Source: Vulcanisaeta thermophila
GTDB taxonomy: Archaea > Thermoproteota > Thermoprotei > Thermoproteales > Thermocladiaceae
Direction of reading: 5' to 3'
Length of the DNA stretch: 64,000 nucleotides
Assembly: GCF_001748385.1 (NCBI RefSeq)
Contig: NZ_BCLI01000004.1
Span: forward strand, 558,001-622,000
Positions within the stretch are counted from its first letter, which is position 1. Every line of letters begins with the position of its first letter. Of this stretch, positions 48,350 to 58,045 are shown piece after piece. The position numbers were made by a program, and so were the translations under genes. The notes under the pieces were generated by a model. It was not told the DNA's origin and ran no database searches. It worked only from the letters and a program-made list of their open reading frames with translations.

Positions 48350-49489
48350 ATGGAGGTTGTTGGTGGTAAGGCTCGGGAGGGGTTTAAGTACCACGTTATT
48401 TCCGAGATTAATGGTAGGATTAGGCTCAGGATTAGTGAGGATGCCAAGTCTAGGCTCATGAGGGCTGGTTACGGAATATTTAATCACTCCACGGTGGAGC
48501 TTTGCCACTGGACCAAGAGTGCTCTTACCCAGGGGCCCAGTTGTTATAAGTTTAAGTTTTACGGAGTCCCCGCGGGTGGTTCCCATAGGTGTGTGGAGTT
48601 TAGTCCCGTGGGTATGATTTGCAGTAATAAGTGCGTCTATTGTTGGAGGCCCACGGACTCCTTCGACTCTTTCATACCCAATGCCGATTACCTTGACGAC
48701 CCTGTGGAGTTGGTTCAGGGTATTCTTAGGGAGAGGTATAGACTCCTCACGGGGTACTTCGGAAACCCCAAGGCTAGGGAGAGGGCTAAGGAGGCCCTGA
48801 CGCCCACTCATTGGGCCATTTCATTGTCCGGCGAGCCCACCATGTACCCAAAATTGCCGGAGCTTGTTAAGTACCTCAAGTCCCTCCCCAGCACGAGGTC
48901 CGTCTTCATAGTGACCAATGGCCAGTATCCCGAGATGCTCGAGAGGCTTGAGAGGGAGGGTGCATTACCCACGCAGCTTTACCTGTCCTGCAACGCACCC
49001 AATAGGGAATTATTCTACAGGATCAACGTGCCCGTTTTGAACAGGGATGATGCCTGGGAGAGGTGGTTGAGGAGCCTTGAGTTGCTCAGTAGGTTGAATA
49101 CCAGGACCATAATCAGGATAACCCTGATAAGGAGTTTGAATTACGATCCCAAGTATATACCCGAGTTCGCGAGGTTAATGCTCATTGGTAACCCACACTT
49201 CATTGAGGTTAAGTCCTACATGCACCTGGGACACTCCACGTATAGGCTCAGTAAGAGTGACATGCTTTATCACCGTGAGATTAGGGAGTGGGCCCTGAAG
49301 CTCCTTGAGGAGATTAATAGGTTGGGTGGTAACTTCAGGTTCATGGATGAGGATGAGCAGAGTAGGATTGTGGTTCTACAGAACATGAGTAGGTATGTTG
49401 ATAGGTGGATAGTGCGCCCTGAGGATCAGCCAAAGCTCAGCGAGGCTGATGTGCAGAAGTTATCCAGCGCCCTTAAATCCTCGATGTAG
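48350..49489 (+). CDS. taw1: tRNA 4-demethylwyosine synthase Taw1 (TYW1)
   Basis: Radical SAM enzyme that makes the tricyclic 4-demethylwyosine from m1G37 of tRNA-Phe and pyruvate. The SAM cluster motif C-S-N-K-C-V-Y-C-W is at Cys 91, 95, 98; extra cysteines at 52, 65 and 81 match the second [4Fe-4S] cluster of archaeal Taw1. S-L-S-G-E-P-T-M-Y-P near 164 is the SAM motif. The 379 residues are somewhat longer than typical archaeal versions. Its last 64 bases overlap the convergent endonuclease V gene. Confidence 0.93.
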   Translation: MEVVGGKAREGFKYHVISEINGRIRLRISEDAKSRLMRAGYGIFNHSTVELCHWTKSALTQGPSCYKFKFYGVPAGGSHRCVEFSPVGMICSNKCVYCWRPTDSFDSFIPNADYLDDPVELVQGILRERYRLLTGYFGNPKARERAKEALTPTHWAISLSGEPTMYPKLPELVKYLKSLPSTRSVFIVTNGQYPEMLERLEREGALPTQLYLSCNAPNRELFYRINVPVLNRDDAWERWLRSLELLSRLNTRTIIRITLIRSLNYDPKYIPEFARLMLIGNPHFIEVKSYMHLGHSTYRLSKSDMLYHREIREWALKLLEEINRLGGNFRFMDEDEQSRIVVLQNMSRYVDRWIVRPEDQPKLSEADVQKLSSALKSSM

Positions 49490-50208
49490 TGATCCCTCAG
49501 GTAATTGGTTATCTTCCTCTTTAGTGCGTTGGCCACGTTGTGTGAGTGGAGTATGGGTATTGGCATTTGTGACCCCACGCACAGCCTCCTAACTAACTCA
49601 ACGGCACTCCTCAGTGAGACCCCATGCCCAACGCTCACGTACGTGGGCTTACTGGACGCGCACCTCAGTGCCCACCCAATGACCTCGCCAGTGCCTGGAT
49701 CCAGCACCGGCCCCTCAATACTATCCACCCTACCGTAGAGTAGAGACTTAGCCACACCCACAGTGGGTATGCCCATGCAAACGCCAAAGTGACTCGCTAT
49801 CCCAAGCCTATACGGGTGCGCCCTGCCGTGCCCGTCCACCAGCACCACCTGGGGTTTCTCCCTGAGTCTCATGTAGGAGCCCACCATGGGCTTCAACTCC
49901 CTAAAGGATAACAACGTAGGTATATACGGGAACCTGACCTCACCAACCCAGCAACTCACATCCACAATGGACCTCCTGGTCATGGAGTATGTGCTGGCCA
50001 CGGAAACCCCAACCTCGTGATTAGCAATGTTTATGTAAGCCACATCTAAACCCGCCACCGTGTCCACACTATCCATGCTTATCAAGTCACTCTCAATGAC
50101 CCTGCCCGCGAGGGTTCTTTGGATCCTCCTTGCAACGGTTAGGTTGAAGTTGGGCGGTATCCTTGACCTCACAAAGGATTCGCTGGGTCCCCTACTGACC
50201 CTTGCCAT
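49426..50208 (-). CDS. nfi: Endonuclease V
   Basis: Repair enzyme that nicks DNA near deoxyinosine. The 260-residue protein contains V-A-G-L-D-V-A-Y (first Asp), F-P-Y-I-P-T-L-L-S-F-R-E (Glu), V-L-V-D-G-H-G (second Asp) and P-T-V-G-V-A-K-S, with the wedge and catalytic residues of the family. The C-terminal 20 residues are antisense to taw1. Its start overlaps the thiI 3' end by 17 bases, suggesting a shared transcript with thiI. The segment 49820-49923 has an exact copy elsewhere in the window. Confidence 0.93.
   Translation of the reverse strand: MARVSRGPSESFVRSRIPPNFNLTVARRIQRTLAGRVIESDLISMDSVDTVAGLDVAYINIANHEVGVSVASTYSMTRRSIVDVSCWVGEVRFPYIPTLLSFRELKPMVGSYMRLREKPQVVLVDGHGRAHPYRLGIASHFGVCMGIPTVGVAKSLLYGRVDSIEGPVLDPGTGEVIGWALRCASSKPTYVSVGHGVSLRSAVELVRRLCVGSQMPIPILHSHNVANALKRKITNYLRDHYIEDLRALDNFCTSASLSFG
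49820..49923 (-). repeat. 104-bp exact repeat, copy inside nfi
   Basis: This interval, read on the minus strand, is identical base for base to 57084-57187 read on the plus strand. It encodes the central endonuclease V segment from the P-T-L-L-S-F-R-E block through the catalytic V-D-G-H-G-R. The other copy belongs to a truncated nfi fragment. Confidence 0.9.
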
Positions 50209-51652
50209 ATGAATCCCTCAATTTCTCAATGCTTATCGAGAACGCCCTGTAGCCCATTCTCCTTAGTTCCGATGCTACGAACCTACTACTCAACCCCCTG
50301 CTGCAGTATAGTACGTAAACCCTGTCCTTACCCATGGACTTTACGAGATCCATTACATTATCAATGTTGGCATTTATCGCCCCTGGGTAATGCCACGACT
50401 CATACTCAGGCTTACTCCTTAGGTCTATGACCACGGCATCCCTAGGCACAACATCAATATCCACGTCCTGGGAGTCCTCTAGGGCCTTCAGGACCTCGGG
50501 TATTGAGCTTGCCTTTATGGTGACCATGGTGCTTAACGCCTCATCTATCAACCCCGGGCTCAATTTCGAGACCTCGGCCTCCACATCCTCCGGTGTTGCC
50601 CTTGTCCTGGGCTTCTCTGAGAATATGGCGCAGAATTCCTCGTTCTTTATTGATAATTCGTAGGTCCCAATCATCCTCGCGTAACTCACAATTTCGTCCT
50701 TGTCAAGCCCTATCAATGGTCTGTATATGGGTATGTCAATCCCGTGGCTCGCGGCCATTAGGTTGTGGAGTGTTTGTGATGAGACCTGCCCCAGGGACTC
50801 CCCCGTGACTATGCCCAATGCGTTTGTGGACTTGGCAATGGCCTGGGCTATTCTGTAGAGTATGTGTTTGTAAACCACATTCCATAGGTGCGGGTTAACA
50901 GTACCCCTTATCTCATTCACCAACCCTGAGCAATTAATTATGTGTATTGACGCGTCGTAACCAATGGACCACCTACTGAATAATTCATGGGCAACCCTGA
51001 GAAAGCCCAGTGTATCCAGTGGGTGTGCCAGGGAGCAGAACATGGCATCCACGTAGGCCCCCCTCTTCATCATGAACCAGGCGGCCACGGGCGAGTCCAG
51101 CCCTCCTGATATCAACGCCAGGACCTTGCCTTCAGAGCCCAGTGGGAGCCCACCAGGCCCCTTAACAACCTCATGGAAGAGGTACGCCCTGTCACCCCTA
51201 ACCTCTATGTGAAGCTCCACATCGGGCCTCTCCAAATCCACACCCCTGGCGTACTGCCTAAGTGCGGCGCCCACCTCCCTATTTATGTCCATTGACGTGA
51301 AGCCATGCACCCCAACCCTGTGACTCCTCACCGCGAATACCTTATCCTTAACGAGGGACGCCCACTCCCTAACCGCGGCATTGACTATATCATTTATGCT
51401 GTGGACCACGTACTCACGGGCTGGCGCCACGAACTTAACACCGAAAACCCTACTCACCAGGTCCACCGCATCCTTAGCCCTGTCATCACTAACCTCCACA
51501 AGCAACCTACCCTGCGACCTACTAACCCTCGCCTCAATGCCCGCTTTCTTCAATCCCTCCATTATATTCCTCATTAGTAGGTTCTCCATCCTCCTCCTGG
51601 TTCCCGGGCCCTTTATGGCAACCTCACCATAACCAATGAGCAGCACAACCAT
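50192..51652 (-). CDS. thiI: tRNA 4-thiouridine synthetase ThiI with rhodanese domain
   Basis: Sulfurtransferase that makes s4U8 in tRNA and may also serve thiazole synthesis. Domain order in the 486 residues: N-terminal ferredoxin-like/THUMP region (about 1-170), PP-loop ATPase with I-S-G-G-L-D-S-P-V near 181, and a C-terminal rhodanese domain whose loop Y-C-S-R-G-L-S-S holds the persulfide Cys. Cys in N-E-E-F-C-A-I-F-S matches the second catalytic cysteine of bacterial ThiI. A TATA-like box (revcomp near 51672-51682) gives a leaderless start at the ATG 51652. It overlaps nfi. Confidence 0.93.
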   Translation of the reverse strand: MVVLLIGYGEVAIKGPGTRRRMENLLMRNIMEGLKKAGIEARVSRSQGRLLVEVSDDRAKDAVDLVSRVFGVKFVAPAREYVVHSINDIVNAAVREWASLVKDKVFAVRSHRVGVHGFTSMDINREVGAALRQYARGVDLERPDVELHIEVRGDRAYLFHEVVKGPGGLPLGSEGKVLALISGGLDSPVAAWFMMKRGAYVDAMFCSLAHPLDTLGFLRVAHELFSRWSIGYDASIHIINCSGLVNEIRGTVNPHLWNVVYKHILYRIAQAIAKSTNALGIVTGESLGQVSSQTLHNLMAASHGIDIPIYRPLIGLDKDEIVSYARMIGTYELSIKNEEFCAIFSEKPRTRATPEDVEAEVSKLSPGLIDEALSTMVTIKASSIPEVLKALEDSQDVDIDVVPRDAVVIDLRSKPEYESWHYPGAINANIDNVMDLVKSMGKDRVYVLYCSRGLSSRFVASELRRMGYRAFSISIEKLRDSYGKGQ

Positions 51653-51751
51653 TTACACACTAATGTTATCACCTCCCTTTAAAACACATACGCCCACCAC
51701 AGTAGGGAATAAAAACACCAACACATTAATTAGGCAAGGCCCTCCGGCGTG

Positions 51752-51804
51752 GGCCCTGGAGGTGGGCTCAGCCCACCAATGAATTGGGCTCCTCCAAGGG
51801 GGCC
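51752..51804. other. Three-way-junction inverted repeat in the thiI/amidase gap
   Basis: Strong nested complementarity: GGCCC (51752-51756) with GGGCC (51800-51804), TGGAGG (51757-51762) with CCTCCA (51791-51796), enclosing the hairpin GTGGGC-TCA-GCCCAC (51762-51776, about 6-7 bp) and a small CCAA-TGAA-TTGG hairpin (51776-51787). Either strand could fold into a compact junction RNA. The element lies upstream of the thiI TATA box, so it is not in the thiI leader; on the minus strand it lies about 170 bases beyond the amidase stop. The rest of the 320-base gap is T-rich on the plus strand with nothing recognised. Confidence 0.45.
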
Positions 51805-51973
51805 AAAAACCCTCCCTACAATGGGATTTGTGGTGGTTGTGGACTAGGCCTGGTTTTGTTTTGGTTTTGTAAGGTGATCGGTTGTGGTTTGTTCAATACT
51901 TATTAGCTATGTTTTTATGTTTTATGGTTTATATTTAGTATCATGAGCACAGGATTACTGTGGTTGCGGATAG

Positions 51974-53494
51974 TTATGAATATAGTTTGTTTATTTCTAT
52001 TGCGTGTGCTATGTTTAGTATTGTTTCTTCGTTTAAGTGTTTGGTTACTAGCATCATTCCAATTGGTAATCCGTTTAATTTACAGCAGGGTATTGATAGT
52101 GCTGGGTGTCCGGTTACGTTGAATGGTGCGGTATTGTATAGCATGCCGGCTGTCATTAATAGCATTAGTTCAGGTGTTGGGTTGTCTATGAATTTGAGTG
52201 GTTTTTGTGGGGTGGTGGGCATGAGTAATGCGTCGAATTTTGTTAATGCATTGTCGTAGACTTTTCTTAGATCTAATGCTAGGTTTCTGGCTTTTGCATA
52301 GTATACGTTGTTGTACCTGGTTATCATGTAGTAGCCGAGTACTGCGGCTGCCTTAACGTTTAATGGTAATTCACTGGACATGGTTTTGAGGACATTGCCA
52401 AAGAATTCGGCTAATTGCCATTCGAGGTAGCCGCTTCTCCAGCCGACCCCTGAGGCTAGGAGCATATTGGCTACAGCGCCTTCGATCATTATTGGTGTCC
52501 AGATGGTCATGCCTAACTTGTGCATTGGTATTGAAACCTCCTCAACGTTTGCTCCTAGGTCGCGTAGTTTATCGGCGGCTTCCTTGACGGCCTTGTTTAC
52601 ATCCTCCTCGGAAACGGGCCATTCAAAGCCCTCCTTTACGATTCCTATTTTTAATCCCTTAATGCTGCCCGTGAGCAATTTTGTGTAAGGTTTGACAGGG
52701 GGTCTTGGTAGGTCGCTGGGTTGCCTGGGATCTAGGTCGTCTCTGCCTGCAATAACCTCAAGTGCTATGGCTAAGTCCTCGACTCTGCGTGCTATTGGTC
52801 CCGCGTGGTCTAATGTGGGTTCTATTGTGGCGATTCCTGTGTATGGTACTAAGCCGTACGTTGGTTTAAGCCCGTAAACCCCACTCCATGCGCTTGGGAC
52901 CCTTATTGAGCCGCCCTGATCGGCGCCTATCGCTACATCGCATACGCCTGTAGCGACGGCTACGGCTGCGCCGCTAGATGAGCCACCACTCATGTATTCG
53001 GGGTTAATAGGGTTTAGTACTGGTGTTGGGTATGATGTGAAGCTGCCACCTGAGAAGCTGAGTGCTTCACAGGTTGTTTTTGCAACTATGTGTCCTCCTT
53101 CGTTAAGTATTCTTATGACGACGGTAGCATCAATTTCGGGTACAAAGCCCTCGAGTATTTTTGAGCCGTGTAGCATTGGTACGCCAGCGATCATCACGTT
53201 ATCCTTAACGCAGAATTTCTTGCCGTTAAATTTACCATTGTCTTTGCCCTTGATGTCAGTGAGGAAGGCTATGGCACCGTAAGGATTCTCCTGAGGGTTT
53301 GGTCTTCTCCATGTCCTGGAGTAGGGTGCACGTAATGAGTTGGAGGTTTCGTCGCTGATTTTATCAAGTTCATTATATGATAGTATTAGTAATTTAATTG
53401 CGGATTGTATTGCTGTGATTTCCTCATCGTTTAGGTGAATACCTATTTTTGTGGCTAAATCCCTGATTTCTGTGGCTGAGGGGGTTCTGGGCAT
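51974..53494 (-). CDS. Amidase (amidase-signature family)
   Basis: Ser-cisSer-Lys hydrolase of 506 residues. The triad is visible: Lys 97 in C-V-K-D-N-V, the cis-Ser in M-S-G-G-S-S-S-G near 172, and nucleophile Ser 196 in D-Q-G-G-S-I-R-V-P. It could cleave aliphatic or aromatic amides; GatA-type tRNA amidation is unlikely because no gatB/gatC neighbours exist. Codon choice is more T-rich than in most of the window. With the permease and formamidase 0.8 kb upstream it forms an amide-use group. An AT-rich promoter (53525-53545) precedes the ATG. Confidence 0.82.
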   Translation of the reverse strand: MPRTPSATEIRDLATKIGIHLNDEEITAIQSAIKLLILSYNELDKISDETSNSLRAPYSRTWRRPNPQENPYGAIAFLTDIKGKDNGKFNGKKFCVKDNVMIAGVPMLHGSKILEGFVPEIDATVVIRILNEGGHIVAKTTCEALSFSGGSFTSYPTPVLNPINPEYMSGGSSSGAAVAVATGVCDVAIGADQGGSIRVPSAWSGVYGLKPTYGLVPYTGIATIEPTLDHAGPIARRVEDLAIALEVIAGRDDLDPRQPSDLPRPPVKPYTKLLTGSIKGLKIGIVKEGFEWPVSEEDVNKAVKEAADKLRDLGANVEEVSIPMHKLGMTIWTPIMIEGAVANMLLASGVGWRSGYLEWQLAEFFGNVLKTMSSELPLNVKAAAVLGYYMITRYNNVYYAKARNLALDLRKVYDNALTKFDALLMPTTPQKPLKFIDNPTPELMLLMTAGMLYNTAPFNVTGHPALSIPCCKLNGLPIGMMLVTKHLNEETILNIAHAIEINKLYS

Positions 53495-54070
53495 GTGTCT
53501 GTGTTACCTTGTATTTAATAAATATTTTGGATAGGAAAAATATATAATTATCTACACCTAGCATATAGCTAGAGAGTTTGTTATTGAGAATTTTATAGAT
53601 GCGGGGCAATAATTCATAAGTATTAAAATTACGCACTAACATAATGCTTAATGAGGAGGGACTAGCGGCACATTACTTGAATGAATCAGTAGATAATGCG
53701 TTGAGAAGTACATTTTTCACAAAGCAAATCTAGTAAAATAGTCTTAAGTACCGGGCATAATCGTGACATAGAGATAACAAGGCAGGGTTAATACTACGGT
53801 TATACCCAAGATAATGAGGATAATTAAGGGTGAAGTAGCTAATAGAAAGAACATAACTATATTAGCCATCTTCCCTGAATTATTAATTGCCTGGGTGTGG
53901 GTTATTGGGGTTATATTGTGAGGGCTATGGTGGAGAATGTAGCATTAAATATTAATGGGCATTTTAGTAAGCCTTTTATGCATATTGCTTTCATTAATAT
54001 AATAACATTGTCATAGCACCTAAAATCGCATCCTCCTTGAGGAAGCTCACGTACTCACTACATGTGTTCT

Positions 54071-54092
54071 TCAGAACTACGCAAAGTTCTGA
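54071..54092. repeat. Hairpin in the gene-poor gap
   Basis: TCAGAACT (54071-54078) and AGTTCTGA (54085-54092) form a perfect 8-bp stem with a 6-base loop ACGCAA. Hairpins like this occur at ends of IS200/IS605-type elements, but no transposase or TnpB sequence is visible beside it. Confidence 0.4.
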
Positions 54093-54271
54093 GTCCCTAA
54101 TGAGCTGAAGGATCTAATGGATTTTAGTAACTGGTTCTCTAGGGTTAATCTGAGCCGTTGATCAAGAATGTTCGAAGTCACTGTCCCATGTTATCTAATG
54201 GGTGGTTATGGGAATAATGGATAGAGGTATTATTTCAGGAGTATTCTATAGGGGATTTATTTAGGGTAAAG

Positions 54272-54284
54272 CTTAAAAATTTAT
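54272..54284 (+). promoter_or_regulatory. TATA box of the second APC permease gene
   Basis: CTTAAAAATTTAT lies about 30 bases before the ATG at 54309, consistent with a leaderless start there rather than at the GTG 54300. Confidence 0.5.
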
Positions 54285-54308
54285 AGACTACATAGCTCCG
54301 TGGGTTCC

Positions 54309-55694
54309 ATGGATTCTTCAACCGGTTTAAAAAGAGGTGTTGTGACTTTTCTAGAACTTGTTTTTCAGTCCATAAGTTTCACGGCCCCTGGTATAGCTGC
54401 CCTGGCTACGCTTAGTGGTGCAGTGGCCTTTGCCTATGGTTCCACACCCCTCGCTGTGCTCTTGGCTGCATTTGGTGTTGCCTCAGCTGCATATGCGGTT
54501 TATGAATTCTCGCTTAAGGTGGCGTCCAGTGGTGGGTATTATAGGTATATTGAGAGGGGATTTGGTCCTAGGGTTGGTACCTGGGGTGGTTGGTTGTACA
54601 TATTGTACGCGGGCATTGGAGCAACGCCATTCATTTACCTTGAGACAGCCTTAACAGTTCAGTATGGCTTGTCTGCATTGGGTGTTAACTTACCGGATTG
54701 GTCCTGGTACCCGCTGGGTATTGCTGATGCCCTGCTTGCCTTGGTGCTGCCTTACCTGGGAATTAAGCCCTCGGTTAGGTACATGCTGTGGACTGGTATG
54801 ATAGAGATGGCGGCTTTAATGCTCGGTGGCGCAATAATAATTGCCCTGTCCCCAAGGCCCTGGGATCCACTTGTATTTACACCAACCTACGCTCCCGGTG
54901 GTTGGTCGGGTGTTGGTATGGGCTTGATCTTCGCCTTCACGGCATTTGCTGGCTGGGGCTCTATGGTATTCTTAGGTGCAGAGGCTAAGGAGGCGCACAT
55001 GAATATTAGGAGGGGTGTCATAACAGTGATACTACTGCTTTCAGTATTCTTCGTGTTCATGAGCTATGCCTTGATAATAGGCTGGGGGCCCAGTAATGCC
55101 TCTACTTATTTTCAATACTTCATACCTGGAATTGTAGAGGCCGTTAAGTACGGCTTATATCCTATGGCCGTAATATGGTTAATACTTGTAATAAATAGTG
55201 GGTTTACCGATACAATGGCCATACTCAATGCAGTCTCTAGAGATATCTACACAATGTCTAGGGATAATGCCTTGCCTCGGTGGTTTTCAATTACTCATCC
55301 TAAGTATAGGACGCCTCATAGGGCGTTGGTTATTGATACGGTAATTGGCTTGATATTATTCACGGTGCTCGGCTGGACGTTGGGGCCATTAAATGCGTTC
55401 TTAATCACTGGTCTTTGGGGTGGTATTGCTACATCCATAGAGCATTTACTGGTGAATACGGCACTACCTTTGTACTCGAGGAAAAAGGGGTTCTTCAAGT
55501 GGACGCATGTTGTTGTGCCTTCGATATCGTCTGTACTTTACATATTCGTCCTTTACGCCACCGCAGTAACCACCGCAGTAAGCTTGCCGGTAATCATTGC
55601 GGCCATTTTCCTAGTGGCCTGGTTCGTGGCCACAGCAATTATATCCTGGGTAAGACCAGCAAAACCCCAAATCGAAGCTGGTGAGGAGTTATGA
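54309..55694 (+). CDS. APC-superfamily permease, second copy
   Basis: A 461-residue transporter with about 12 predicted helices. The N-terminal G-V-V-T-F-L-E-L-V-F-Q-S-I-S-F-T-A-P-G-I helix and the Y-R-Y-I-E-R-G-F-G-P-R-V-G-T-W segment are typical of the amino acid permease/APC group. It differs clearly from the permease at 35.7 kb. The formamidase gene starts within its last codons (ATGA overlap), so the two are translationally coupled and the permease likely imports an amide, amine or amino acid used by the neighbours. Confidence 0.85.
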   Translation: MDSSTGLKRGVVTFLELVFQSISFTAPGIAALATLSGAVAFAYGSTPLAVLLAAFGVASAAYAVYEFSLKVASSGGYYRYIERGFGPRVGTWGGWLYILYAGIGATPFIYLETALTVQYGLSALGVNLPDWSWYPLGIADALLALVLPYLGIKPSVRYMLWTGMIEMAALMLGGAIIIALSPRPWDPLVFTPTYAPGGWSGVGMGLIFAFTAFAGWGSMVFLGAEAKEAHMNIRRGVITVILLLSVFFVFMSYALIIGWGPSNASTYFQYFIPGIVEAVKYGLYPMAVIWLILVINSGFTDTMAILNAVSRDIYTMSRDNALPRWFSITHPKYRTPHRALVIDTVIGLILFTVLGWTLGPLNAFLITGLWGGIATSIEHLLVNTALPLYSRKKGFFKWTHVVVPSISSVLYIFVLYATAVTTAVSLPVIIAAIFLVAWFVATAIISWVRPAKPQIEAGEEL

Positions 55695-56626
55695 TCACTA
55701 TTGACGGGACTAAGGAGGAGAACTTGCACTTTAAGTGGAGTCCCGATCTAAGACCCATTGCTTATGTTAGGGATGGTGATGAGGTTAGGGTCATAATACC
55801 GGACTCCTCAACAATGCAGATAAAGCCGGGTATGACTACGGAGGATCTAGCCAAGCTGAGTTCCTCAAAGTTTGATGCAGCAGTCGGGCCTATCTATGTT
55901 GAGGGTGCTGAGCCTGGTGATGCCTTAGCCATTGATATACTGGATATACAGGTGGGTGATTGGGGTTGGTCCGCAATACTTAGTTTCATAGGTCTATTAA
56001 AGGGTAGGTTTAGGGATTTACTCGTTCATTGGAGAATTAGTAATGGCTATGCCGAGACCATGGGCGAGTTCCTCAGGGGCATTAGGGTGCCTGTTAGGCC
56101 ATTCCTTGGGGTTATTGGGGTTGCGCCTAGGGATGGTGTGTTCGGCATGATACCACCGCAGTACTTCGGTGGTAATATGGATAATAGGCTTCATGGGGTT
56201 GGGGCCAGGGTTTACTTACCTGTTAGTGTGAGGGGTGCGTTGCTGTCGCTGGCTGATCCGCACGCTAGCCAGGGAGATGGCGAGGTCACGGGCACGGCGA
56301 TAGAAACGAATGCGACTGTTAAGATTAGGGTTAACGTCGTTAAGGGCTTGAACATAAGGAGGCCGTTCACGGTGGCCCCAGTTAGGGATGAGCCTACAGA
56401 TGTCATTGCAACCATGGGAATATCCAATGACCTGTATCAAGCGGCTAGGGATGCTCTTGAGGATATGCTGTCAATATTGGGTAAGCTATATGGCTTGACG
56501 CCTGAGGAGGGTTATGTGTTGAGTAGTGTAGTTGGTAATCTGAGGATCTCAGAAATAGTTGATGAGCCAAACTATGTGGTAACGTTAACAATACCAAGGA
56601 ATATACTAGAAAGACGAAAAAATTAG
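55691..56626 (+). CDS. fmdA: Acetamidase/formamidase family protein
   Basis: A 311-residue FmdA-type hydrolase that releases ammonia from short-chain amides. The family features are V-G-P-I-Y-V-E-G-A-E-P-G-D, G-G-N-M-D near residue 160 (metal-binding loop), D-P-H-A-S-Q-G-D-G-E-V near 190 and R-D-E-P-T-D near 235. Together with the coupled permease and the amidase across the gap it forms a nitrogen-scavenging module. No regulator is seen next to it. Confidence 0.88.
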   Translation: MITIDGTKEENLHFKWSPDLRPIAYVRDGDEVRVIIPDSSTMQIKPGMTTEDLAKLSSSKFDAAVGPIYVEGAEPGDALAIDILDIQVGDWGWSAILSFIGLLKGRFRDLLVHWRISNGYAETMGEFLRGIRVPVRPFLGVIGVAPRDGVFGMIPPQYFGGNMDNRLHGVGARVYLPVSVRGALLSLADPHASQGDGEVTGTAIETNATVKIRVNVVKGLNIRRPFTVAPVRDEPTDVIATMGISNDLYQAARDALEDMLSILGKLYGLTPEEGYVLSSVVGNLRISEIVDEPNYVVTLTIPRNILERRKN

Positions 56627-56686
56627 TTTTAGCGATATGTTAGTGTTAAATTATGTCGCATATCCATTACGCTTAACTATTACTAA

Positions 56687-57085
56687 TTAAATTCTCTTTC
56701 TGTCGAAGACCTCCGAAAAACCAATACCCAGGTATAATGGGCCGTCAATCACCAGAACACTGCTTCCCAGGGATTCCTTACTCACGGCTTCAACGGCTCT
56801 GTTCTCCAGGTTCATTCGTAATTCATCACCTATCAGTGTATCATTCTTAATGGATGAGTAGTATGCACCATTCTCAACATCGCTTTTGACCCTTATCCCC
56901 TTGATCTTCCCATCAATTTCCCTTAAAACCTCCTCACCAGCCTTTAACCCAATGAACGCCTCACCACCCAGATCCAAGGCCTTACCCATCAAGCCCGGGT
57001 GAGTGCTCAAAGGTACGCCATTATAGTTCCATATTGATTTTGCGTCATCCTTGCTTTTTAAATACTCCTTAAGCTCCCCATACAT
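56687..57085 (-). pseudogene. Truncated NurA-like nuclease fragment
   Basis: A 132-codon frame starting at ATG 57085. It contains E-N-R-A-V-E-A-V near residue 94 and V-L-V-I-D-G-P-L-Y-L near 110, a pair resembling the second motif region of the NurA 5'-3' nuclease, which normally runs to 300 or more residues. Here the protein stops soon after, so the C-terminal catalytic half is missing. The frame continues 12 codons upstream to 57121, but that part is antisense to the duplicated nfi fragment. The family assignment is moderate; it may alternatively be a short diverged member. Confidence 0.45.
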
Positions 57086-57209
57086 ACCTACGTTGTTATC
57101 CTTTAGGGAGTTGAAGCCCATGGTGGGCTCCTACATGAGACTCAGGGAGAAACCCCAGGTGGTGCTGGTGGACGGGCACGGCAGGGCCTGCGCCAGAGGG
57201 TTTAGTTAG
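57078..57209 (+). pseudogene. Endonuclease V gene fragment (partial duplicate of nfi)
   Basis: One frame reads P-Y-I-P-T-L-L-S-F-R-E-L-K-P-M-V-G-S-Y-M, continues through V-D-G-H-G-R-A, then diverges and stops at 57207-57209. The stretch 57084-57187 is exactly identical to nfi 49820-49923 in the opposite orientation. Just left of the exact part, the P-Y-I codons match the nfi protein but differ at two bases. Both ends of the gene are missing, so it is not functional. Confidence 0.85.
57084..57187 (+). repeat. 104-bp exact repeat, copy in the fragment patch
   Basis: Identical to the minus strand of 49820-49923 in nfi, so the two copies form an inverted pair about 7.2 kb apart. Recombination between them could invert the intervening segment that contains thiI, the amidase and the permease/formamidase genes. 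Confidence 0.9.
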
Positions 57210-57345
57210 GGTTACTGGCATAGTGACCCTGGACTCCGTGATAAGGTCGCTACCTGAGTTCATTGGTAGGGAGAGCCTGGTTAGGCTTAATGCCGAGGCC
57301 GTTAAGATGGGTTATGACCGAGGTGTATGGGCATACCTTAATTAA
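57205..57345 (+). pseudogene. C-terminal fragment of a 2-oxoacid:ferredoxin oxidoreductase gamma subunit
   Basis: The frame reads V-T-L-D-S-V-I-R-S-L-P-E-F-I-G then L-V-R-L-N-A-E-A-V-K-M-G-Y-D and ends at TAA 57343-57345. The L-N-A-E-A motif followed by a G-Y segment is the C-terminus of gamma subunits of POR/IOR-type enzymes. It is not the same as the intact porC at 43.7 kb, which ends differently. It directly abuts the nfi fragment, and no start codon or N-terminal part exists. Confidence 0.65.
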
Positions 57346-57374
57346 CCAATGATTAACCTGGGATGTTTCACCGC

Positions 57375-57992
57375 CTAGAGCCTGAGGGGTTGGAGTGGTA
57401 TTGTTTCTTCGCTTGTTCCATTGCTCGTTATTGTGAGTATGTCTATGCCGTCCCCAGACACTGGGTCCCTGGATATGCTCTGGGCTATGGCCTTCACGGC
57501 CAGGTCCCTGGCCTCCTTAACGCTCATACCACTCCTGTAATTGCTCTCCAGGATCGCGATGGCCAGTTTGGTCCCCGTGCCCACCGCTGCGTAGTCGTCC
57601 TCTATTAATGAGCCCAGGGAGTCCATTATGAAGAGGTGGGGCCCCTCATCATCCACACCGCCCACGATCACCTCCACGAAGTATGGGAGTATCCTGTTTG
57701 AGAATAGTACGTAGGATAGTAACTTGGCGGCTGACCTAATACTGGGCCTTGTTTTTGTGTCCATTGCGTAGAGTGACATGTATGCCTTGGCTATCTTTGT
57801 CAGGACCTGCATGTCAGCCACTATGCCTATTGAGGCAATCCCAATATTATCATTAACCTTAAACACCTTCTTACCAGACCTACTGAACATTGTGAATCCG
57901 TAGGAAACCCTCTTCTCAGCCGCTAAAACCACACCATCACTCGCCTTTATACCCACGGCGGTCCCAGTTATTAGCTCCTCCACTGATGACAT
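57375..57992 (-). CDS. psmB: Proteasome beta subunit, apparently non-catalytic type
   Basis: Beta subunit of the 20S proteasome (205 residues). The fold is intact: D-G-V-V-L-A-A-E-K-R, S-G-K-K-V-F (active-site Lys position), and G-S-L-I-E-D-D-Y-A-A-V-G-T-G. At the N-terminus the sequence is T-G-T-A-V-G-I; aligned without gaps to catalytic subunits (T-T-T-V-G-I), the essential Thr1 position holds Gly 10, while Thr lies one residue before and one after. This resembles the inactive beta1-type subunit of crenarchaea, which works with a separate catalytic beta2. The ATG at 57992 is preferred to the TTG just upstream. It is divergent from the next gene. Confidence 0.85.
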   Translation of the reverse strand: MSSVEELITGTAVGIKASDGVVLAAEKRVSYGFTMFSRSGKKVFKVNDNIGIASIGIVADMQVLTKIAKAYMSLYAMDTKTRPSIRSAAKLLSYVLFSNRILPYFVEVIVGGVDDEGPHLFIMDSLGSLIEDDYAAVGTGTKLAIAILESNYRSGMSVKEARDLAVKAIAQSISRDPVSGDGIDILTITSNGTSEETIPLQPLRL

Positions 57993-58045
57993 CAAATCAA
58001 TGGGTTAAGGAGCATTTATAAATTTAAGCTCAGTAATTACCATTA

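What the first reader, a model, noticed from the sequence alone, without database searches (positions are those of the whole stretch)
57084..57187. 104-bp perfect inverted copy of part of nfi, 7 kb from the gene
Bases 57084-57187 equal the reverse complement of 49820-49923 without a single mismatch, yet just outside the left edge the match drops to homologous but diverged codons. An old nfi fragment recently made identical by gene conversion, or a fresh partial duplication, would explain this. The inverted pair could also flip the 7-kb segment with thiI, amidase and formamidase genes.
Basis: seen in the sequence. Interest (0 to 1): 0.6.

Follow-up and report, generated by a model that had tools for sequence, protein, structure and literature searches.

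The report
Two-gene fragment scar beside proteasome gene
Between a formamidase gene and a proteasome gene of the hot-spring archaeon Vulcanisaeta thermophila lies a patchwork of broken gene pieces, two of which (about 100 bases each, from nfi and porC) are identical to the working genes; it looks like a DNA-repair scar whose pieces were later copied over by the intact genes, and it is interesting mainly as a natural record of repair in archaea.

Summary
In detail: 57084-57187 equals the reverse complement of 49820-49923, 104/104. The finding is larger than described. Right beside it, 57205-57304 is a 100-bp exact copy (homology runs to 57317) of the 3' end of the pyruvate synthase gamma gene (porC) on another contig, and to its left lies a truncated NurA-like piece. 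The genome is V. thermophila CBA1501T. In ten relatives nfi-thiI-psmB are collinear with 225-1184 bp between thiI and psmB. Here a 5.6-kb amidase-permease-formamidase island sits in that gap, and the mosaic is its right edge. At three sites on the fragments' outer edges the copy keeps the ancestral base while the intact gene has changed; inside both ~100-bp cores all 25 gene-specific changes are shared. The favoured history is two-step: illegitimate (Ku-less, templated) capture of gene pieces, then homogenisation of the cores by ectopic gene conversion. Collapse by the short-read assembler, or one recent copying event, is not excluded. Inversion of the 7-kb segment is not supported: the order matches relatives and inversion would break nfi. 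An 850-kb sample of the genome showed no other such site. Real and instructive, but a scar rather than a system.

The parts
49426..50208 (-). nfi, endonuclease V, intact; donor of the fragment (49820-49923)
   Evidence: Pfam PF04493 E=2e-55; 104/104 match
50192..51652 (-). thiI, intact, collinear with relatives
   Evidence: PF02568; order in relatives
51740..51807 (+). H/ACA-like small RNA element (PyrR201-like), conserved between thiI and psmB in relatives; marks the left border of the inserted island
   Evidence: Rfam RF02801, 33.7 bits, E=0.0033, below the gathering score of 49; conserved block in relatives
51808..57374 (.). inserted island (amidase, permease, formamidase, fragment mosaic), absent from this place in ten relatives; borders approximate
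   Evidence: relatives have 225-1184 bp between thiI and psmB
56687..57069 (-). NurA-like fragment (ORF 56687-57121), lacking the first ~70 residues and the C-terminal half of its relatives; right end approximate
   Evidence: PF09376 E=0.018, below cut-off; 36-45% identity to NurA-like proteins of relatives over residues 24-125 of the 133-aa query; relative 391 aa
57033..57070 (-). 38-bp promoter-like stretch (TTTAAA) 84% identical to the sequence upstream of a gene on contig C1
   Evidence: E=2e-4 in own genome; position just upstream of an ORF
57070..57083 (+). diverged outer edge of the nfi fragment, ancestral base at 57083
   Evidence: alignment with 11 relatives
57084..57187 (+). nfi fragment core, 104/104 identical to nfi (sense on +); holds only part of the gene, not a working gene
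   Evidence: frames
57188..57204 (.). 17-bp filler between the two fragments, source not traceable
   Evidence: only chance-level matches
57205..57304 (+). porC (POR gamma) 3'-end fragment core, 100/100 identical to G000:C1:499924-500023
   Evidence: donor gene TIGR02175 E=1.4e-54
57305..57317 (+). diverged outer edge of the porC fragment, carrying ancestral bases at two sites
57375..57995 (-). psmB, proteasome beta subunit; right border of the island
   Evidence: PF00227 E=3e-52; 87-93% identical in most relatives

Best explanation
A repair scar with a two-step history. First, when the amidase-permease-formamidase island was joined to the chromosome in the short gap between the H/ACA-like RNA and psmB (or in a later break there), the right-hand junction was closed by illegitimate, templated end joining. 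Short single-stranded or newly copied pieces of chromosomal genes (about 110-120 bp of nfi, about 113 bp of porC, separated by 17 bp of filler) were patched in next to a truncated NurA-like gene. Later, the intact nfi and porC genes overwrote most of their fragments by ectopic gene conversion, leaving identical cores of 104 and 100 bp and unconverted 13-14 bp outer edges. Shown: the mosaic, its donors, the island context, the ancestral edge bases. Inferred: the end-joining step, the enzymes (candidate: primase-mediated microhomology annealing, as shown in Saccharolobus) and the direction of conversion.
For: Mosaic of two gene fragments from unlinked donors at one junction. Island absent at this place in ten relatives. 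No other recent gene-fragment copy of this kind in about 850 kb of the genome; the rest are tRNA genes, paralogues, low-complexity DNA, a CRISPR-like repeat or unidentified G+C-rich stretches near contig ends. Outer edges keep ancestral bases at 3 sites where the gene is derived, cores share 25/25 gene-derived sites (Fisher p=0.001, boundary set post hoc); clustering of the differences at the ends p about 4e-4 or less. No Ku gene found in the genome, so a Ku-independent route. Microhomology-mediated end joining by the replicative primase is shown in Saccharolobus islandicus (PMC12019639). In yeast, inserts at breaks have median 88 bp (rad27 mutant) or 187 bp (dna2 mutant) and can be complex (PMC11724301).
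Against: No clear microhomology could be shown at the junctions and the 17-bp filler is untraceable. Two conversions of such short fragments are needed. Only one genome of the species is held, so neither step can be dated or seen segregating. The genome is a short-read draft, and an assembler could have produced the identical cores.
Confidence: 0.5

Rival explanations
1. One recent event: 104 bp of nfi and about 110 bp of porC were copied into the junction together by template switching or capture of short single strands. The few edge differences arose afterwards in the intact genes, or are chance similarity at the nfi left edge.
For: Simplest count of events; cores are identical; the porC differences are changes in the intact gene, as expected if the copy is frozen; fragment sizes resemble known templated insertions (PMC11724301).
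Against: All differences sit at the outer ends (joint p about 4e-4 or less); relatives' nfi genes align through the nfi left edge.
Confidence: 0.28
2. The fragments are real but their perfect cores are made by the assembler: CLC merged the similar gene and fragment paths and wrote one consensus in both places.
For: Draft MiSeq/CLC assembly with non-specific reads mapped randomly (PMC5069417); both cores are about 100 bp and end at the first mismatch.
Against: 300-bp reads at 688x can span the whole 234-bp mosaic, and mapping parameters are reported; merging needs shared words between few differences, which fits badly with edges that differ at 7 of 27 sites; the gene cores look normal against relatives.
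Confidence: 0.15
3. The fragments serve as an antisense tail: transcripts running leftwards out of psmB would carry 104 nt and 100 nt perfectly complementary to nfi and porC messages.
For: Both fragments lie in the same orientation, antisense to psmB transcription; no run of T within about 190 nt after psmB; identity of the cores is kept.
Against: Same orientation has probability one half by chance; no such fragments in relatives; no RNA data; no reason for these two targets.
Confidence: 0.03
4. An inversion switch: the inverted pair recombines and flips the 7-kb segment.
For: 104-bp perfect inverted pair.
Against: Order and strand of nfi, thiI and psmB equal those of relatives; inversion separates the two halves of nfi.
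Confidence: 0.02

Closest known systems
Templated insertions at double-strand breaks (yeast dna2/rad27 mutants, cancer genomes; PMC11724301)
   Same: Short pieces (about 100 bp) of distant loci, more than one per junction
   Different: Seen here as a fossil in a hyperthermophilic archaeon in which no Ku gene was found, not observed in action; junction microhomology not shown
Primase-mediated microhomology end joining in Saccharolobus islandicus (PMC12019639)
   Same: Crenarchaeal, Ku-independent, templated copying across discontinuous templates
   Different: Reported products there are mostly 1-2 bp insertions or deletions, not 100-bp gene pieces; not tested in Vulcanisaeta
Short-patch double illegitimate recombination (SPDIR) in Acinetobacter baylyi (from memory)
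   Same: Short single-stranded pieces of own or foreign DNA patched into unrelated sites
   Different: Known from a bacterium and usually as replacements; not tested here
Ectopic gene conversion between a gene and its partial copy
   Same: Identical core, diverged ends, core carries the gene's private changes
   Different: Tracts here are limited to about 100 bp by fragment length, two fragments side by side

Membership tests
Templated insertion scar at an illegitimate junction | Inserted pieces copied from identifiable distant donor loci that remain intact | tested here: met
   nfi at 49820-49923 and porC on contig C1, both intact
Templated insertion scar at an illegitimate junction | Junction absent from related genomes | tested here: met
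   relatives have thiI-RNA-psmB without island or fragments
Templated insertion scar at an illegitimate junction | Microhomology or filler at the joints | tested here: inconclusive
   17-bp filler present, microhomology not demonstrable
Ectopic gene conversion | Core shares gene-specific derived sites while flanking homologous edges do not | tested here: met
   25/25 core sites shared, 3 of 4 edge sites not
Ectopic gene conversion | Tract real in the cell, not an assembly product | not testable with these tools
   no reads or second assembly held
Invertible segment / inversion switch | Both orientations exist and leave genes usable | tested here: not met
   single orientation equal to relatives; inversion disrupts nfi
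Mobile element carrying host fragments (virus or plasmid) | Same fragments or mosaic in viral or plasmid sequence | tested here: not met
   no match in viral contigs, phages or plasmids

The most novel reading that the evidence does not exclude
The paired fragments are a kept antisense module in the 3' tail of psmB transcripts, linking proteasome expression to nfi and porC through 100-nt perfect duplexes, with identity maintained by repeated conversion.
Probability: 0.03. Interest if true: 0.75.

Novelty: new member of a known kind. Interest (0 to 1): 0.3.

Why it matters
How archaea without Ku join unrelated DNA, and how large acquired islands get stitched into their chromosomes, is poorly documented. 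A natural junction with two traceable ~100-bp donor pieces, polarised against relatives, gives a concrete substrate for testing templated end joining and short-tract gene conversion in a hyperthermophile. It is also a caution that identical short repeats in short-read drafts may be assembler-made.

Tried and rejected
Searched viral contigs, phages and plasmids for the fragments, the mosaic and the NurA piece: nothing. Self-comparison of about 850 kb for further fragment copies: tRNA genes, paralogues, low-complexity DNA, a CRISPR-like repeat and unidentified G+C-rich stretches near contig ends only. Traced the 17-bp filler and the 60-bp tail: chance-level matches. Island stretch 51653-54320 against the genome: no further copies. 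Ku search negative. Inversion switch rejected. Length match to archaeal Okazaki fragments (about 100 nt, from memory; the original paper is not held) was considered as a source of the pieces but could not be tested.

Full report
What was checked. The genome is Vulcanisaeta thermophila CBA1501T: 2,022,594 bp in 10 contigs, largest 791,731 bp, window contig 634,758 bp, as published (PMC5069417; contig sizes). It is an isolate sequenced with 300-bp MiSeq reads at 688-fold depth and assembled with CLC.

What lies there. The 748 bases between the formamidase gene (ends 56626) and psmB (57375-57995, minus strand) are a patchwork. From left to right: a NurA-like piece on the minus strand (PF09376 E=0.018, below cut-off; 36-45% identical to NurA-like proteins of relatives over part of its length) that lacks the beginning and end of its relatives; a 38-bp stretch resembling the region upstream of another gene; the nfi fragment; 17 bp of untraceable filler; and a fragment of the 3' end of the pyruvate synthase gamma gene (TIGR02175), identical to the intact gene on contig C1 over 100 bp and homologous to 57317. 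Both fragments are sense on the plus strand.

Context. In ten Vulcanisaeta relatives nfi, thiI and psmB follow each other on one strand with 225 to 1184 bp between thiI and psmB. That gap holds a conserved H/ACA-like RNA element (PyrR201-like, weak Rfam score), which in V. thermophila is still next to thiI (51740-51807). A 5.6-kb island with amidase, permease and formamidase has been inserted between this element and psmB; in two relatives the permease-formamidase pair lies at an unrelated place. The fragment mosaic is the right edge of that island.

Is it unusual in this genome? A self-comparison of about 850 kb (all of contig C4 and parts of C1 and C6) found no other recent copy of a gene fragment. 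The other short matches were tRNA genes, paralogous genes, low-complexity DNA, a CRISPR-like repeat, and two unidentified G+C-rich matches involving the ends of contigs C4 and C6. That both recent copies sit 17 bp apart points to one junction event.

Age and homogenisation. Relatives give the direction of change. At the outer edge of the nfi fragment and at the outer edge of the porC fragment, three sites carry the base of the relatives while the intact V. thermophila gene has a derived base. Inside the cores the intact genes have 25 derived sites and the copies share all of them. If differences fell evenly along the fragments, confining them to the ends would have a joint probability of about 4e-4, or 3e-6 with the wider nfi edge. 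The core limits were set after seeing the data, so these values are indicative. The pattern favours older fragments whose cores were later overwritten by the intact genes; an assembler that merged gene and fragment would leave a similar trace and cannot be excluded without reads.

Mechanism. No Ku gene was found, which argues against classical end joining. Microhomology-mediated end joining driven by the replicative primase is documented in Saccharolobus islandicus (PMC12019639), and short templated insertions of distant DNA, sometimes complex, are documented in yeast with medians of 88 or 187 bp in flap-processing mutants (PMC11724301). The mosaic looks like a product of such a process; this is inference. 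No microhomology could be shown at the joints.

Inversion. The present order and strand are those of the relatives, and recombination between the two copies would part the two halves of nfi. A switch is therefore unlikely.

Verdict. A real, larger-than-described feature, best read as a repair scar at an island border with later core homogenisation: a new instance of known kinds of events, of moderate interest.

Noticed in passing
51740-51807; L032 3817-3887: Conserved H/ACA-like RNA element between thiI and psmB across Vulcanisaeta (Rfam PyrR201-like, below gathering score).
   Followed up: partly
L032 3964-4020: Conserved C/D-box-like RNA in the thiI-psmB gap of relatives, not seen at this place in V. 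thermophila.
   Followed up: partly
L036 4306-5489, L037 8352-9535, L035 3620-4216: Three relatives also carry extra DNA (about 0.2-0.8 kb) between the RNA element and psmB, so this spot may attract insertions.
   Followed up: partly
L112 (G000:C6:80001-96878), C6:87190 and C6:90704: Inverted pair of a CRISPR-like repeat (AAAACCAATGATACAGAAGATTTCACAAGAAGATTGAAAG).
   Followed up: no
G000:C4:634624-634707 and C6:95557-95640; C4:171436-171577 and C6:96667-96808: G+C-rich non-tRNA repeats, most copies near contig ends, identity unknown.
   Followed up: no
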